Shown: one piece after another, positions 11,400 to 30,045 of the stretch | How the letters are laid out: every line of letters begins with the position of its first letter | Position numbering within the stretch: the stretch's first letter is position 1 | DNA from: Flavobacteriales bacterium | Lineage (GTDB): Bacteria > Bacteroidota > Bacteroidia > Flavobacteriales > PHOS-HE28 | NCBI GenBank assembly: GCA_008016945.1 | Contig: SSGN01000172.1 | Location: 1 to 30,598 of the forward strand | Length of the DNA: 30,598 nt | Reading direction: 5' to 3' | Program-made: the position numbers and the translations under genes | Notes under the pieces: generated by a model | Told to the model about the DNA's origin: nothing | Seen by the model: only the letters and a program-made list of their open reading frames with translations | Databases searched by the model: none

Positions 11400-11406
11400 C
11401 GGAAAT

Positions 11407-11437
11407 GCGAAAGCCTCCGGACATCGGAGGCTTTCGC
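11407..11437 (-). terminator. Terminator after dnaA
   Basis: A perfect 13-bp stem (11407-11419 with 11425-11437, loop of five) lies 18 bases after the dnaA stop on the minus strand. The trailing sequence ATTTCC is only weakly T-rich. Confidence 0.7.
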
Positions 11438-11454
11438 AGGGTTACCATTGGGTC

Positions 11455-20342: not shown

Positions 20343-21236
20343 ATGGACAACCGTTTCCGCGGCCTTGGTGTCGCCCTCGTAACCCCCTTCCGCTCCAACG
20401 GTGGCATCGACTACGCCGGATTGGAGAAGCTCATCGAACACCAGATCACCGGCGGCGTGGATTATGTGGTGAGCATGGGCACCACCGGCGAGAGCGTCAC
20501 CCTCACCAAGGAGGAGAAGAAGCAGTTGCTCGCCACCACCGTGGAGCTGGTGCGCAACCGTGTGCCCGTGGTGCTTGGCGTGGGCGGCAACAACACGGCC
20601 GAGGTCATCGACAGCCTCAACAGCTTCGAGATGGACGGCGTGGACGGCATCCTTAGCGTGAGCCCGTACTACAACAAGCCCACGCAGGAAGGCATCTACC
20701 AGCATTTCAAGGCCATCGCGCAGGCCAGCCTTCGGCCCATCATCCTGTACAACGTGCCCGGCCGTACCGGCAGCAACATGAGCGCCGAGACCACCGTACG
20801 CCTCGCCAAGGACTTCCGCAACGTGGTGGCCATCAAGGAAGCCAGCGGCAACCTCGATCAAATGGGCATGATCCTCAAGCACAAGCCGAAGGATTTCATG
20901 CTCATCAGTGGCGATGATACGCTCACGTTGCCCACCATCGCCATCGGCGGGGTGGGGGTGATCAGTGTGATCGGCAACGCCCTGCCCGCCGAAACGAGCA
21001 GCTTGGTGCATGCCGCGCTGAAGGGCGACCTTGAAACCGCGCGCAGGGAGCATCTGCGTTTGATGGAGATCATCAACCTGCTCTTTGTTGAAGGAAACCC
21101 CGGCGGCATCAAGTACGTGCTGAAGTCGCTCGGTATCTGCGGCGATCACATGCGCCTGCCGTTGGTGAACATCAGCGAGGCCACGGAAAAGAAGCTGTAC
21201 CACGCTTTGGCGGATGCGGAGGTGGTGAAGTTGTGA
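20343..21236 (+). CDS. dapA: 4-hydroxy-tetrahydrodipicolinate synthase DapA
   Basis: Condenses pyruvate with aspartate semialdehyde, the first committed step of the lysine and diaminopimelate pathway. The 297-residue TIM-barrel protein has GTTGES (46-51), Tyr136 in LYNVPGRTG, Arg141, and the Schiff-base Lys165 in VVAIKEASGN. The late block GGVGVISVIGN is also typical. Length and ATG are canonical. The gene lies 17 bases after the DUF6913 gene and ends eight bases before a perfect palindrome at 21245-21285 that may act as its terminator. Confidence 0.98.
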   Translation: MDNRFRGLGVALVTPFRSNGGIDYAGLEKLIEHQITGGVDYVVSMGTTGESVTLTKEEKKQLLATTVELVRNRVPVVLGVGGNNTAEVIDSLNSFEMDGVDGILSVSPYYNKPTQEGIYQHFKAIAQASLRPIILYNVPGRTGSNMSAETTVRLAKDFRNVVAIKEASGNLDQMGMILKHKPKDFMLISGDDTLTLPTIAIGGVGVISVIGNALPAETSSLVHAALKGDLETARREHLRLMEIINLLFVEGNPGGIKYVLKSLGICGDHMRLPLVNISEATEKKLYHALADAEVVKL

Positions 21237-21244
21237 GGAACTTG

Positions 21245-21285
21245 GTGGTAGGAATTTCGCCACGCCGTGGCGAAATTCCTACCAC
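21245..21285. repeat. Palindromic repeat, copy 1
   Basis: A perfect 41-base palindrome with 20-base arms around a central C (21265), core GCCACG-C-CGTGGC. It starts eight bases after the dapA stop and lies between dapA and the convergent beta-barrel gene. Related copies are at 22173-22213 and 23489-23533. Confidence 0.9.
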
Positions 21286-21364
21286 GTACTCTTTCTTCAT
21301 CTGGCGCAGCCAAGGAGAAGAAATGCCCCGCGCACGGGTTGATGCGTGATGACGGAACGCCCGT

Positions 21365-22096
21365 TCACGATCGGTACACGTAGCTCAACATCAGCCCGGC
21401 GCTCCACAGGCGCTCTCCGATCGGGTTGTTGTTGCGTAGGTCAAGAAGACCGTAGCACAACGTGGGTTCGATACGCATCGCCCCCTTGCTGCCCAGATCA
21501 TAGAGCAGGCCGGTGCTTACGGTGGGCGATAGGCTGATGGTCCGGTATCCATCGACCTTCGTGGTCGAGTGTTCTCCAATCACGACCGTGCTGGTGGCTT
21601 TTAGCAGGATGTTCATGCTAATGCCTGCGGTGGTGATCCAACGGAAAGGTCCGTTCCCCAGCGTGAGCGTTCCCCGTACGGGCACATCCAGATAATGGAA
21701 GCTGCGACGAGCGGCCTTCAGGCTGTCATCTGTAGCATGAATGAACCCTCTGCGCGGCACGATTTGATCCCCGAGCGTCAGTTTGGAGACATCGAGTTGC
21801 CAGCCGCGCAACCCATAGCCTACGCCCGCTTCCAGTCCGAGCCGAGCATTGAACGCGTAACCGACAAAGAAGGTGCCTGTGCAGCCAAGTCGGGCCTGCT
21901 CTAATCGGTCACGGTCTTCCGCTATTCGTTCACTGAAGCCATTTCGCTGGTTCAGCTCCAATGCCCGGTAAGCGTGGTCAACGGAACCTTGGATGCCGAT
22001 GTGGAAGCGCGATGAAGCCGCTTTCACGGGTGCGTCCTGCGCATGGCAGATGCCCGCGAACAGGATGGCAGACAGGATGGATGTGCTGCACTTCAT
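21365..22096 (-). CDS. Outer-membrane beta-barrel protein
   Basis: A 243-residue protein with a signal peptide (MKCSTSILSAILFAGICHAQ). The mature part has barrel-like strands: FHIGIQGSVDHAYRAL, CTGTFFVGYAFNARLGLEAGVGYGLRGWQLDV, HYLDVPVRGTLTLGNGPFRWITTAGISMNILL, and a final LMLSYVYR strand. This resembles the PorT/OmpX-like small-barrel proteins of Bacteroidota; the function is unknown. The start at 22096 is chosen over 22213 because the longer frame would be translated palindromic repeat. A full-match TAnnTTTG box lies 15 bases upstream. Palindrome copies 1 and 2 flank the gene at 21245-21285 and 22173-22213. Confidence 0.88.
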   Translation of the reverse strand: MKCSTSILSAILFAGICHAQDAPVKAASSRFHIGIQGSVDHAYRALELNQRNGFSERIAEDRDRLEQARLGCTGTFFVGYAFNARLGLEAGVGYGLRGWQLDVSKLTLGDQIVPRRGFIHATDDSLKAARRSFHYLDVPVRGTLTLGNGPFRWITTAGISMNILLKATSTVVIGEHSTTKVDGYRTISLSPTVSTGLLYDLGSKGAMRIEPTLCYGLLDLRNNNPIGERLWSAGLMLSYVYRS

Positions 22097-22111
22097 GCGA
22101 TCAGGATCGAT

Positions 22112-22119
22112 CAAATATA
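22112..22119 (-). promoter_or_regulatory. -7 promoter box for the beta-barrel gene
   Basis: The minus strand reads TATATTTG, a full match to TAnnTTTG, 15 bases before the ATG at 22096. The -33 region lacks a clear TTG. Confidence 0.55.
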
Positions 22120-22172
22120 GCACGGATGGGAGAGTGGAACAGCCTTGCCCGTGCCATGGAATGCGGCATGGT

Positions 22173-22213
22173 GTGGTGGGAAATTCGCCACGCCGTGGCG
22201 AAATCCCCACCAC
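22173..22213. repeat. Palindromic repeat, copy 2
   Basis: A 41-base palindrome centred on 22193 with two mismatched pairs. It directly abuts the stop codon (22214-22216) of the minus-strand DUF4143 ATPase gene. The central 25 bases match copy 3 closely. Confidence 0.88.
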
Positions 22214-23449
22214 CTACCATTCCCACAAGGCGCTCAACGGTACTGCGTGGATGTCCTTGGCGAAGGGCGTGATGCCCAGCCCCGGATGCAGCAGGATGCC
22301 CCTCAGCCACTTGTCGCCGGCGGTTTCGCGCAGGTGCTTCAACCCGGCCATGTCACTGCTACCCACGGCCATGCCTGCCTTCACCTCGATGCCCACGATC
22401 CGGCCCTTGTTGTCCTCCAGCACCACGTCCACTTCCCGACCGGCCTCGGTGCGGAAGTGATGCAGCTTCACTCGCGTCCTGCTCCAACTGGCGGTCTTCC
22501 GTAGTTCGTTCACCACGAAGGTCTCCAGCAGTGGCCCGAACGACGGGCTGTCCATGATATCGGCCGGTTTGTCGATGCCCGCGAGATTCGCCGCGAAACC
22601 ACTGTCGGCAAGATGCAGCTTGGGCGCTTTCACCAGCCGCTTCCCCCGGTTGCTGTGCCACGCGTTGAGGGGTGTGCTGAGGAAGGTGGCTTCGAGCAGC
22701 GCCATGTACCGGCGCAGGGTGCTGTGGGGTATGTCCAGCGACCGTGAGAGGTCGGCCATGTTCAGCAGGCCGCTGCTCCGCAAGGCCAGCGCGCTGAGCA
22801 GCCGGGGCAGGTCGGTGAGGCCCGTGATGTTGCTGATGTCGCGCACGTCCCGTTGCAGGATGCTGGTGATGTAGGCGCCGTACCACGCATCGCGCCGCGC
22901 GGCGTCCTTCCGGGTCATCACCTCGGGGTAGCCACCGGCGGTGACCAGCGCGGCTACCTTCTTCCGCTCCAGCACGGTGGGGTCCGCCATTCGCGGCCTT
23001 GCCGCGAACACCTTGTCGATGAAGCTGCTCTTCCGGCCCAACAGTTCATCCTGCGCGAAGGGGAACAGCGGGATGATCTCCATCCGCCCGGCCAGCGAAT
23101 CGTCCAGGCGGGGCAGCACCAGCACGTTGGCGCTGCCGGTGAGCAGGAACCGCCCCGGCTTGCGGTCGCGGTCCACGCTGGCCTTGATGGCCCGGAAGAT
23201 GTTGGGCGCGTACTGCACCTCGTCGATCACCGCCAGCTTGCCCAGCCCTTGGATGAACGCGGGCGGGTCGTTCAGCGCAGCCTCCAGCGTGGGGTGATCG
23301 TCCAGCGTGACGTACCGTGCGCCACGCTCCCGCGCGATGGCCTTGGCAAGCGTGGTCTTACCCGTCTGACGCGCGCCGTGCAGCAGCACCACGGGGGTGT
23401 CCTTCAGCGCGATATCCACGGCATATTGGATGTTCCGGGCCTTTTCCAT
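22214..23449 (-). CDS. DUF4143-type AAA ATPase
   Basis: A 411-residue protein of the ATP-binding AAA_14/DUF4143 group. Walker A is GARQTGKT (25-32), Walker B is AVIDEVQ (73-79), and the LTGSANVL sensor block follows. A winged-helix-like region (LSRSLDIPHSTLRRYMALLEATFL) leads into the DUF4143 part. The C-terminal text REVDVVLEDNKGRIVGIEVKAG has the D then E-x-K pattern of a PD-(D/E)XK nuclease-like fold. These proteins are common, patchily distributed accessory genes of unproved function, often linked with mobile DNA. Frames starting upstream (to 23953) read through palindrome copy 3 and are not used; the ATG at 23449 is the first sensible start. Palindromes stand at both ends. Confidence 0.93.
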   Translation of the reverse strand: MEKARNIQYAVDIALKDTPVVLLHGARQTGKTTLAKAIARERGARYVTLDDHPTLEAALNDPPAFIQGLGKLAVIDEVQYAPNIFRAIKASVDRDRKPGRFLLTGSANVLVLPRLDDSLAGRMEIIPLFPFAQDELLGRKSSFIDKVFAARPRMADPTVLERKKVAALVTAGGYPEVMTRKDAARRDAWYGAYITSILQRDVRDISNITGLTDLPRLLSALALRSSGLLNMADLSRSLDIPHSTLRRYMALLEATFLSTPLNAWHSNRGKRLVKAPKLHLADSGFAANLAGIDKPADIMDSPSFGPLLETFVVNELRKTASWSRTRVKLHHFRTEAGREVDVVLEDNKGRIVGIEVKAGMAVGSSDMAGLKHLRETAGDKWLRGILLHPGLGITPFAKDIHAVPLSALWEW

Positions 23450-23488
23450 ATGGCGAATATAGGTGTTGGTGTACGGGAATGTGCCATT

Positions 23489-23533
23489 ACATGGTGGGAA
23501 ATTCGCCACGCCGTGGCGAATTTCCCACCATGT
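23489..23533. repeat. Palindromic repeat, copy 3
   Basis: A perfect 45-base palindrome with 22-base arms around C23511, 39 bases upstream of the DUF4143 ATPase start. Compared with copy 1 both arms differ in matching fashion, so base pairing is kept. Confidence 0.92.
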
Positions 23534-23834: not shown

Positions 23835-24437
23835 ATGGAGTTCCTCGCCCTTGACTTCGAGACCGCTACCTCGCAGCCCGACAGCCCTTGCGAGCTGGGC
23901 ATCGCCATCGTGCGGGGAGGTGTGGTGCGTGAGGTGCGGAGTTGGCTCATCAAGCCCAGGCAGTGGCCCTACTTCAGCCCGTACAACATCGCTGTGCATG
24001 GCATTCGGCCACAGGACGTGGCCCAGGCCCCGCGATGGGAAGGCATCTGGAGCGAGGTGGCGGATGTGTTGAACGGCCAGACGGTGGTGGCGCACAATGC
24101 GGCGTTCGACATGGCGGTGCTGCGCAGCACCCTCGTCAGCCATGGGTTGCCTTTCCCCACATTCCAGTACTTCTGCAGTGTGAGCATGGCACGGCGCATG
24201 TGGCCCGGACATCGTTCATACGGGCTGAAACCGATGTGCGACCTGCATGGGATCGGGCTGAAGCACCACCGCGCGGGCAACGACGCGGAGGCCACCGCCG
24301 AGCTGGTGCTGCGCGCCACGGATCAACGTCCGTCGTTCGATATCACCCAGTTCCTCCTCGATGCGAAGGTGAAGGTCGGTGCGTTCCATCCCGGTGGTCA
24401 CCGGACACCGGGCGGCAAGGTCACGTCCGCGGCGTAG
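23835..24437 (+). CDS. 3'-5' exonuclease, DnaQ-like DEDDh family
   Basis: A 200-residue exonuclease with the DEDDh metal-binding residues in order: Asp7 and Glu9 in LALDFETA, the Asp of VVAHNAAFDMAVL, and His and Asp in HHRAGNDAEATAEL. This is the stand-alone type related to the DNA polymerase III epsilon subunit (family names vary: DnaQ-like, RNase T/exonuclease), which trims 3' ends of DNA or RNA. There is no BRCT or helicase extension. The last ~30 residues (KVKVGAFHPGGHRTPGGKVTSAA) are basic and probably flexible. The ATG at 23835 matches the family N-terminus. It stands alone, converging with the cytochrome gene only 10 bases downstream. Confidence 0.92.
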   Translation: MEFLALDFETATSQPDSPCELGIAIVRGGVVREVRSWLIKPRQWPYFSPYNIAVHGIRPQDVAQAPRWEGIWSEVADVLNGQTVVAHNAAFDMAVLRSTLVSHGLPFPTFQYFCSVSMARRMWPGHRSYGLKPMCDLHGIGLKHHRAGNDAEATAELVLRATDQRPSFDITQFLLDAKVKVGAFHPGGHRTPGGKVTSAA

Positions 24438-25698: not shown

Positions 25699-26144
25699 GA
25701 CGTTGGCCCATTGGTGGAGCCTGTAGGCCTGCGGACCACCACGGGGCGTGATGGACGCGAGCGTCCATGATGCACGGCGCAGGAAAGGCCCTCGTTCCCG
25801 AGATGGGGGGGCGTTGGGGCGGCAACGAAGCGTTGACCATTGCGATGGTGACAAGGACCTGCCTCCTTGTTATACCATTTGGACATTCAATAGCGGCCGA
25901 AGATGCGCGGCCATCATTCACAGGCCGGTACGGTAGACCAGTTGTGGAGCGGAGCCAGGGAACAGGTCTCCGGTGATGGCACGAGGGAACAGGACATGTC
26001 GATCGGCTGGTTTGGGAGGTCTATGCGGCATACCACGTTCTCATTCGGTTCGCGGCCTGAGTACGGAGCTGGGCCTGATCCATCATGCGGGTCGAATGAC
26101 GCGGAGGGATGATCGAGTATCGTTGTCCGCTGGAACAAGTGGGG
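25699..26144. other. Intergenic region with hairpins and diverged repeat
   Basis: A 446-base gap between the convergent rhomboid and LamG genes. It has an inverted repeat at 25751-25768 (8-base arms, 2-base centre) and a hairpin at 25851-25870 (ACAAGGA/TCCTTGT, loop six), either of which could end rhomboid transcription. Repeat copy A fills 25872-26010. No gene is supported. Confidence 0.6.
25872..26010. repeat. Diverged intergenic repeat, copy A
   Basis: Shares with 28523-28701 an opening block of ~36 bases with four differences (ATACCA..TGGAC.TTCAA.AGCGGCC, then GAAGATGCG), later GTAGACC, a 13-base identity GGAACAGGTCTCC, and CGATCGGC. Copy A lacks about 40 bases found in copy B. Confidence 0.75.
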
Positions 26145-28467: not shown

Positions 28468-28522
28468 CATCCCCCGCACCGTTCGGTGGTGACCATGGCC
28501 GTTCCGTGGAGCCGGACGTGTA

Positions 28523-28701
28523 ATACCAGCTGGACCTTCAAGAGCGGCCGAAGATGCGGGACTGTTCATCTCCAGCTCATACGGAAGTCCTGGTGCAAGG
28601 CCGTAGGCGTAGACCGCAGGGAGCGAAGCTGCCGAGGGCCGAGCCGCTGGAACAGGTCTCCTGGTGAAGCCCGGAGGGAGTGGAGCGAACCGATCGGCCG
28701 G
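28523..28701. repeat. Diverged intergenic repeat, copy B
   Basis: The longer copy (179 bases) of the repeat at 25872-26010. The first block (28523-28558) is the best conserved; GGAACAGGTCTCC at 28649-28661 is identical. Both copies are intergenic and in the same orientation. Confidence 0.75.
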
Positions 28702-29932: not shown

Positions 29933-29963
29933 CAAGCCCTGGCGACCAGGTCACCAGGGCTTG
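29933..29963 (-). terminator. Terminator after tRNA-Pro
   Basis: A perfect 10-bp stem (29933-29942 with 29954-29963, loop of 11) begins seven bases after the tRNA on the minus strand, followed by TTCGTATC. Confidence 0.7.
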
Positions 29964-29970
29964 AAGTTTG

Positions 29971-30045
29971 TCGGGGTGAGAGGATTCGAACCTCCGACCT
30001 CGTCGTCCCGAACGACGCGCGCTAACCGGGCTGCGCTACACCCCG
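29971..30045 (-). tRNA. tRNA-Pro (anticodon CGG)
   Basis: A 75-base cloverleaf on the minus strand. The acceptor CGGGGTG pairs with CACCCCG, discriminator A at 29971. The D arm GCGC/GCGC encloses AGCCCGGTTA, the anticodon stem CGTCG/CGACG encloses TTCGGGA with anticodon CGG, and the T arm GGAGG-TTCGAAT-CCTCT has one G-T pair. The 3' CCA is not encoded. It reads CCG codons, which suits a GC-rich genome. Confidence 0.95.

What the first reader, a model, noticed from the sequence alone, without database searches (positions are those of the whole stretch)
21245..23533. Family of 41-45 bp palindromes with compensatory changes
Three near-identical palindromes (21245-21285, 22173-22213, 23489-23533) share the core TTCGCCACG-C-CGTGGCGAA. 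Copies 1 and 3 are perfect palindromes although their outer arms differ in sequence (GTGGTAGG versus TGGTGGGA), so changes in one arm are matched in the other. This implies selection on, or copying through, the paired form. Two copies begin within eight bases of a stop codon (dapA and the ATPase gene). They may be REP/BIME-like mobile palindromes, shared terminators, or targets of a DNA-binding protein. No RAYT-type transposase is seen in the window.
Basis: partly seen in the sequence, partly recalled or inferred. Interest (0 to 1): 0.72.

Follow-up and report, generated by a model that had tools for sequence, protein, structure and literature searches.

The report
Palindromes that bracket one ATPase gene
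Two of the three DNA palindromes sit at the two ends of a single gene for an ATP-driven, nuclease-like protein that belongs to a very common but unexplained candidate anti-phage family, and related genes elsewhere carry their own matching DNA repeats, which suggests that the protein recognises the ends of its own gene.

Summary
The three palindromes are real and not chance. They are not REP-like: in 45 genomes of the nearest family a relaxed pattern gives at most three places each, and 26 of 33 places lie at ends of one AAA_14-DUF4143 ATPase gene or at the dapA site where it sits. Copies 2 and 3 bracket this gene in the window (copy 2 touches its stop codon, copy 3 lies 39 bp before its ATG). 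Copy 1 is a solo palindrome behind dapA, where relatives show full, truncated, solo and empty states. The paired changes hold across 18 copies. The ATPase strongly matches PADLOC's phage-defence candidate PDC-S01. Across phyla many relatives carry subfamily-specific repeats at the start codon: CCAC-n3-GTGG dyads, or iterons at 22-23 bp. Repeat type follows the protein tree. In clade B and on Azotobacter and Rhizobium plasmids, gene plus repeats is conserved between unrelated flanks. Best reading: cognate binding sites of a self-contained, at least occasionally transferred ATPase cassette. Binding and self-movement are inferred. Terminator and RAYT explanations are not supported.

The parts
23489..23533 (.). 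Copy 3: 5'-end palindrome of the ATPase cassette, 22-bp perfect arms, 39 bp upstream of the ATG
   Evidence: palindrome 5' of the gene also in L033, L030, L089, L090, L105, L108, L032
22214..23449 (-). ATPase gene, 411 aa: AAA_14 P-loop, STAND-like helical/winged-helix part, DUF4143 and PD-(D/E)XK-like C-terminus; PADLOC PDC-S01
   Evidence: Pfam; PADLOC (E 1.9e-161); model pLDDT 89, best structural matches 2qen and 2fna; invariant E339, V340, D341, E355, K357 in 50 homologs; dN/dS 0.05-0.15 among five genes
22173..22213 (.). Copy 2: 3'-end palindrome, abuts the TAG stop codon; 18 of 20 pairs
21245..21285 (.). Copy 1: solo palindrome behind dapA, 20-bp perfect arms, outer arm unlike copies 2 and 3
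   Evidence: solo palindromes at the same junction in L139, L145, L138
23454..23461 (-). TATATTCG, candidate -7 promoter box between copy 3 and the ATG (Bacteroidota consensus recalled, not tested)
   Evidence: sequence; inference
20343..21236 (+). dapA, left neighbour of the insertion site
   Evidence: Pfam DHDPS; synteny
23835..24437 (+). exonuclease-like gene, right neighbour; it follows dapA directly in empty sites
   Evidence: Pfam RNase_T
21365..22096 (-). Outer-membrane beta-barrel gene between copies 1 and 2, also beside the cassette in G001 (L033)
   Evidence: Pfam; tblastn

Best explanation
The palindromes are the cognate DNA sites of the ATPase that they bracket. The protein (AAA/STAND-like NTPase, winged-helix part, PD-(D/E)XK-like nuclease part; the PDC-S01 family) would bind dyad units CCAC-n3-GTGG. 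In many relatives one such unit, or a row of direct repeats at 22-23 bp, lies at the start of the gene, which suits autoregulation. In this Flavobacteriales clade the site lies at both ends, so promoter, gene and sites form a closed cassette of about 1.36 kb. Such cassettes are kept for long at one place (behind dapA), lost there leaving truncated genes or a solo palindrome (copy 1), and in related groups found as a block between unrelated flanks. Shown: anatomy, near-exclusive association with the gene, paired changes, agreement of repeat type with the protein tree, block-like conservation between unrelated flanks. Inferred: that the ATPase binds the sites (about 0.8), that it represses itself (about 0.55), that it moves or excises its own cassette (about 0.3).
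For: Pattern matches in 45 family genomes: 33 places, 26 at ATPase ends or the dapA site; the 7 others carry 2 mismatches each; reversed-pattern control 0 in 45; of these 7, the 5 with a fetched locus have 1, 1, 1, 3 and 7 of 12 outer pairs, against 10 of 12 for the G049 solo copy. In 64 ATPase loci (63 of the 75 matches, plus the window) hairpins cluster at the gene start (22 within 100 bp of the longest-frame start) and in the first 100 bp after the stop (17), with 0-2 per 100-bp bin elsewhere. Dyads (loose pattern) lie 5' of 30 of 104 ATPase genes (shuffles: mean 5.7, max 12), 22 of the 30 in genes at least 49% identical to the window's and 8 scattered as chance would give; 3' of 16 of 104 (mean 2.4, max 8), 12 of them in the window's own clade; iteron matches 50 against 0.8. 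Repeat type needs 15 changes on the protein tree against 44.9 shuffled, 0/200. Blocks between unrelated flanks: clade B 4 of 4 cross-site pairs, from 44-48 bp before the start to 30-42 bp past the stop of the query gene, which is the outer edge of its palindromes; Rhizobium 1391 bp at 96.5%; Azotobacter 92.5%, starting 9 bp outside the palindrome. Purifying selection on the ATPase.
Against: No binding data. 54 of the 104 genes carry neither the dyad, nor paired iterons, nor the clade B palindrome by my rules, although by eye many of them have other inverted repeats; by locus only 23 of 64 have a hairpin at the start and 15 of 64 at the end. In the window's clade the two ends share outer arms in 4 of 6 sources; in G003 and G032 they differ. 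At dapA the cassette looks mainly vertical, with many losses, so movement in this very clade is not shown. Only one of three solo sites has a right flank that matches a filled site. One clade B site (L070, L073) has a tyrosine-recombinase-like frame downstream, as has a Novosphingobium copy, so another enzyme may do the moving. The second Rhizobium copy (L297) is frameshifted. The left edge in the Thermus pair coincides with what looks like an IS605-type end. No target duplication was seen. Agreement of repeat type with the protein tree could in part be common descent of linked DNA.
Confidence: 0.66

Rival explanations
1. The palindromes act only as operators: an ordinary chromosomal or plasmid defence gene with autoregulatory sites, shared horizontally by normal recombination or by other mobile elements; the 3' copy is a spare site or a loop-forming partner. 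No self-mobility.
For: Dyads and iterons lie at the start of the gene across phyla; PDC-S01 match; near a restriction-modification gene in P. mendocina; mostly vertical at dapA; recombinase-like frames near some copies.
Against: Both ends carry the site in the window's clade and in clade B; blocks end at the palindromes between unrelated flanks; solo and empty states at one site.
Confidence: 0.45
2. REP/BIME-type repeats moved by a RAYT-like Y1 transposase elsewhere in the genome.
For: Size and palindromy; Y1_Tnp family genes in 16 of 17 palindrome-bearing genomes.
Against: At most 3 places per genome in 45 genomes; no Y1 hit lies within 100 kb of a palindrome on the same contig, and G022, with a solo palindrome, has none; no constant unpaired GTAG/CGTC tag (GTAG before copy 2 is the Trp-stop TGG-TAG, in copy 1 it is inside the paired arm, at copy 3 it is absent).
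Confidence: 0.04
3. Bidirectional transcription terminators or insulators at gene ends.
For: Copy 1 lies between convergent genes and has a T-rich tail; copy 2 follows a stop codon.
Against: Copy 3 lies between divergent genes; copies 2 and 3 are not among the terminator-like sites; such sites in the region 2 against 2.4 in shuffles; sites go with one gene family, not with gene ends in general.
Confidence: 0.07
4. The perfect symmetry is a mutational by-product (template-switch correction of imperfect palindromes) and carries no function.
For: Paired changes can arise without selection by this process (recalled, no call).
Against: Does not explain why the sites are tied to one gene family, why the inner core hardly varies, or the agreement of repeat type with the protein tree.
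Confidence: 0.08

Closest known systems
PDC-S01 (PADLOC phage-defence candidate; Pfam AAA_14 + DUF4143)
   Same: Full-length match to PADLOC model PDLC04790, E 1.9e-161; ATPase fused to a PD-(D/E)XK-like domain, as passages of PMC12988326 describe the family.
   Different: The passages that I read say nothing of DNA repeats at the gene; here the gene is bracketed by palindromes. [quoted passage not shown]
RAYT/REP systems
   Same: A gene bracketed by palindromes (that RAYT genes are flanked by GTAG repeats: abstract of PMC3733652).
   Different: The protein is a STAND-like ATPase with a nuclease-like domain, not a Y1 transposase; at most 3 places per genome; no constant GTAG/CGTC tag.
STAND/NLR-like ATPases: archaeal PAB2304 (2qen) and SSO1545 (2fna), Avs5, NB-ARC proteins
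   Different: C-terminal PD-(D/E)XK-like domain and gene-linked palindromes; the structural match does not tell function.
Autoregulated repressors with palindromic operators (recalled as a general class)
   Same: Dyads at the start of the gene.
   Different: Second copy behind the stop codon in the window's clade and clade B; solo copies at the insertion site.

Membership tests
PDC-S01 | Full-length match to the PADLOC model | tested here: met
   E 1.9e-161, residues 4-410 of 411
PDC-S01 | P-loop ATPase fused to a PD-(D/E)XK-like domain | tested here: met
   Pfam AAA_14 and DUF4143; invariant E339-V-D341 and E355-x-K357 among 50 homologs; a sub-threshold NucS match at 333-391. The nuclease fold was not tested on its own by structure search
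PDC-S01 | Protection against phage | not testable with these tools
   Validation pending for most such candidates per passages of PMC12988326
REP/BIME repeats | High copy number, dispersed between genes | tested here: not met
   At most 3 places per genome in 45 genomes; the window's own genome is not held
REP/BIME repeats | Unpaired GTAG or CGTC tag at one end | tested here: not met
   No constant unpaired tag at the three window copies, read by eye
REP/BIME repeats | Linked RAYT (Y1) gene | tested here: not met
   Y1 genes in 16 of 17 genomes, none near the palindromes
Intrinsic terminator | GC-rich hairpin followed by a T-run | tested here: not met
   Only copy 1 qualifies; count as in shuffles
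Mobile genetic element | Same block between unrelated flanks with fixed ends | tested here: met
   Met for clade B and for Rhizobium and Azotobacter plasmid pairs; for the window's clade two sites only: dapA, and another shared by L032, L091, L093, L086, L095, L104
Mobile genetic element | Target-site duplication or demonstrated transposition | tested here: inconclusive
   No duplication seen by eye at the Rhizobium ends; no experiment
STAND NTPase | NTPase, helical and winged-helix architecture | tested here: met
   Best matches 2qen and 2fna, model range 1-291; STAND sequence motifs were not tested

The most novel reading that the evidence does not exclude
PDC-S01 genes are self-mobilising elements: a STAND-like ATPase-nuclease that recognises, cuts and re-inserts its own short gene at its terminal palindromes or repeats, without any known transposase, so that one of the commonest 'defence candidates' is (also) a selfish cassette, and solo palindromes are its footprints.
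Probability: 0.25. Interest if true: 0.9.

Novelty: new variant of a known kind. Interest (0 to 1): 0.72.

Why it matters
PDC-S01 is called the fourth most common defence across all prokaryotes, and validation is pending for most such candidates (passages of PMC12988326). Cognate DNA sites beside the gene give a concrete ligand to test, an autoregulation hypothesis, and a reason to ask whether the family is defence, a selfish element, or both. My searches of the held library for DUF4143 with 'palindrom' and for AAA_14 with 'inverted repeats' found no paper; DUF4143 alone gave one paper, COG1373 seven, of which I saw passages of two that only list the family.

Tried and rejected
REP/RAYT: rejected on copy number and Y1 positions. 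Terminators: rejected as the common function. Rfam at gathering score: only a tRNA in the window. Integron attC sites: considered and set aside from recalled anatomy (attC arms differ from perfect symmetric palindromes at both gene ends); not tested. Joined-flank search for an empty site of a clade B locus: the upstream gene was found in relatives, but intergenic DNA is too diverged for a base-exact empty site. P. aeruginosa plasmid pWTJH2 as an empty site for L262: repetitive flanks, not base-exact, not used. Novosphingobium and Rhodoferax searches gave no second copy of the block among the rows shown (2 of 22 records not listed). Thermus pair (99.4%): left edge coincides with what looks like an IS605-type end, so not counted. 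Flank test of the solo sites: significant for 1 of 3. Viral contigs: one match of the core, without extended arms. Phage records: 8 ATPase hits at 23-32% identity. Class-wide search: 6 of 395 genomes with a relative at E 1e-60 or better, so the window's subfamily is uncommon in its class. Rows dropped: 12 of the 75 matches were not examined for hairpins (mostly weak or partial ones); L120 and L121 fell out of the 106 loci for because they gave no tblastn match. The structural second look hardly covers residues 315-411, so the fold of the nuclease-like part rests on motif and family; a family absent from that list is not excluded. Iteron pattern in 12 genomes of the iteron group: 10 had matches, most of them beside the ATPase, but some lie on other contigs that I did not examine, so exclusivity is not shown for that group. 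The last paper search was swamped by the short term AAA_14 and is uninformative.

Full report
What was checked. The three palindromes exist as stated and are far from chance: three exact cores against 0.04 matches expected even with 3 mismatches, DNA hairpins at -18 to -26 kcal/mol, none of 200 shuffles as good. Copies 1 and 3 are perfect, copy 2 has 18 of 20 pairs.

Where they are. Copies 2 and 3 lie at the two ends of one gene, 22214-23449 on the minus strand. Copy 2 abuts its TAG stop codon; copy 3 lies 39 bp upstream of its ATG, beyond a candidate promoter box. Copy 1 stands alone 8 nt behind dapA. The gene encodes 411 aa with Pfam AAA_14 and DUF4143, matches PADLOC PDC-S01 at E 1.9e-161, and models well (pLDDT 89). 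Residues 1-291 resemble the archaeal ATPases 2qen and 2fna and, further down the list, NB-ARC, CED-4 and Avs5 proteins. E339, V340, D341, E355 and K357 are invariant in 50 homologs, the pattern of PD-(D/E)XK nucleases (motif recalled); passages of PMC12988326 describe the family as ATPase plus PD-(D/E)XK, fourth most common defence, with validation pending for most such candidates. Among five genes of equal length, the window's included, dN/dS is 0.05-0.15, so the protein is kept by selection.

Relatives. A scan of the genome-contig collection (84,980 species) for the exact core gave 11 stretches, of which the 4 Flavobacteriales have extended arms and the 7 others, by eye, do not. In three of the four the copies come as pairs 1316-1350 bp apart around the same gene (in G004 the left one is imperfect, in G003 the outer right arm is decayed); the fourth (G002) has one palindrome next to the 3' remnant of the gene. 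In 45 genomes of the family of G003 a relaxed pattern gave 33 places in 22 genomes, never more than 3 per genome; 26 lie at ends of these ATPase genes or at the dapA junction (one of them, G042, at a truncated gene), the other 7 carry 2 mismatches each; the reversed pattern gave none. Five of the 7 had a locus: 1, 1, 1, 3 and 7 of 12 outer positions pair, against 10 in the G049 solo copy; the G042 copy pairs at only 4. The window's own genome is not held.

The dapA junction. dapA was found in 43 of 45 genomes; I examined the junction in 32 (30 fetched loci plus L105 and L108). Full cassette: G003, G052, G044, G032, G027. Truncated gene with its 3' palindrome: G002, G021. Solo palindrome: G022, G049, G045. 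G001 has the cassette, but dapA lies on another contig. The remaining 21 have neither: in 19 the exonuclease-like gene follows within 7-190 bp, in 2 there is other DNA (376 and 526 bp). The full state occurs in three separate parts of the dapA tree, mixed with empty neighbours; ATPase identities fall off roughly as dapA identities do. I read this as old presence with many losses, but repeated insertion is not excluded. The right flank of the G049 solo matches the flank outside the 5' palindrome of G052 (0 of 500 shuffles as good), as expected if recombination between the two palindromes removed the gene; against the other filled sites it does not, and the other two solos match none.

Paired changes. 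In 18 copies from 11 sources (G027's longer double palindromes and the second-site copies left out), 8 of 20 pairs have changes on both sides and 91.9% of cells pair; covariation 0.240 against 0.112 in shuffles, none of 500 as high, and sliding the partner destroys it. The main switch is TGGTGGG to TGGCTGG, answered in the other arm. The two ends of one cassette share this form in 4 of 6 sources and differ in G003 and G032. Hairpin, protein dyad and templated correction cannot be told apart by this.

The wider family. 64 ATPase loci were examined (63 of the 75 matches, and the window); hairpins cluster at gene starts (22 within 100 bp) and just behind stops (17), 0-2 per 100-bp bin elsewhere within 2 kb; by locus 23 of 64 have one at the start and 15 of 64 at the end. 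In clade B (L068, L069, L070, L071, L072, L073, L077) a different palindrome lies at the start codon and recurs behind the stop in all seven by eye; in L068 and L069 the stop codon lies inside the repeat. In Pseudomonadota (15 of 398 genomes with a match at E 1e-80) and the phylum of G010, a Verrucomicrobia MAG (15 of 288), and on plasmids, 10 of the 15 relatives at about 49-55% identity outside the window's clade carry a CCAC-n-GTGG dyad at one fixed distance, give or take 2 bp, from the start; three of the other five (L221, L261, L266) carry iterons instead, as do most relatives at 41-47%: TTTACAATTGGACG-like words, spaced 22-23 bp where several occur. Dyad units in the window's clade are also 22 bp apart where two occur. 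On the tree of 104 proteins the repeat type needs 15 changes, shuffled mean 44.9, none of 200 as low; L075, from a genome of the Flavobacteriales family searched, carries iterons and groups with two proteins from the phylum of G010. So, where a type could be assigned (50 of 104), the repeat goes with the protein rather than with the host.

Movement. Four of four comparisons between the L068/L069 site and the L070/L073 site share about 1.27-1.29 kb at 88.5-88.9% from just outside the 5' palindrome to the end of the 3' palindrome, with no further match in about 2 kb on either side. Members of one site share only one long flank: L068 and L069 the right one, L070 and L073 mainly the left one. Downstream of L070 and L073 lie frames that read like tyrosine recombinases (by eye), absent beside L068 as far as I read. 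Two Rhizobium plasmids share 1391 bp at 96.5%, from 83 bp before the ATG to 54 bp past the stop as I read the frame in L266, with unrelated flanks, and two other Rhizobium plasmids share the right flank of L266 from the same place on, within 2 bases; the second copy, L297, is frameshifted. Two Azotobacter plasmids share 92.5% from 9 bp outside the palindrome to 7 bp past the stop. In the intact blocks the ATPase is the only forward frame over 100 aa; overlapping antisense frames reach 196 aa. This shows block-wise transfer; it does not show that the ATPase performs it.

Verdict. The palindromes are best read as cognate sites of the ATPase and, in this clade, as the ends of its cassette.

Noticed in passing
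window 25868-25944 and 28519-28595: Two 77-nt stretches 71% alike, 2651 bp apart; nature unknown.
   Followed up: no
window 29933-29963: 15-bp-arm palindrome next to a tRNA gene (29971-30045, minus strand), terminator-like in position.
   Followed up: no
window 11406-11438: Perfect 14-bp-arm hairpin; may be a terminator, position relative to genes not checked.
   Followed up: no
L070 and L073, downstream of the clade B ATPase; L261: The downstream frames read like tyrosine recombinases, full length in L073 and a C-terminal part in L070 (by eye, no family search); the Novosphingobium ATPase (L261) has annotated integrases downstream.
   Followed up: partly
L303, 1396-2496: About 1.1 kb of extra DNA sits at the palindrome's outer edge compared with L265; may be an insertion sequence that chose the palindrome edge, not tested.
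   Followed up: partly
plasmid collection: 407 of 72,556 plasmid records encode a relative of this ATPase, Rhizobium and Agrobacterium leading; it is a common plasmid gene.
   Followed up: partly
L262 (P. mendocina plasmid): The ATPase lies near a type ISP restriction-modification gene, as a defence candidate might.
   Followed up: no
G697:C222:36100-36136 and G555:C395:2147-2183: Paired iterons of the TTTACAATTGGACG type on contigs other than the ATPase locus found; they may mark a second ATPase or a solo array.
   Followed up: no
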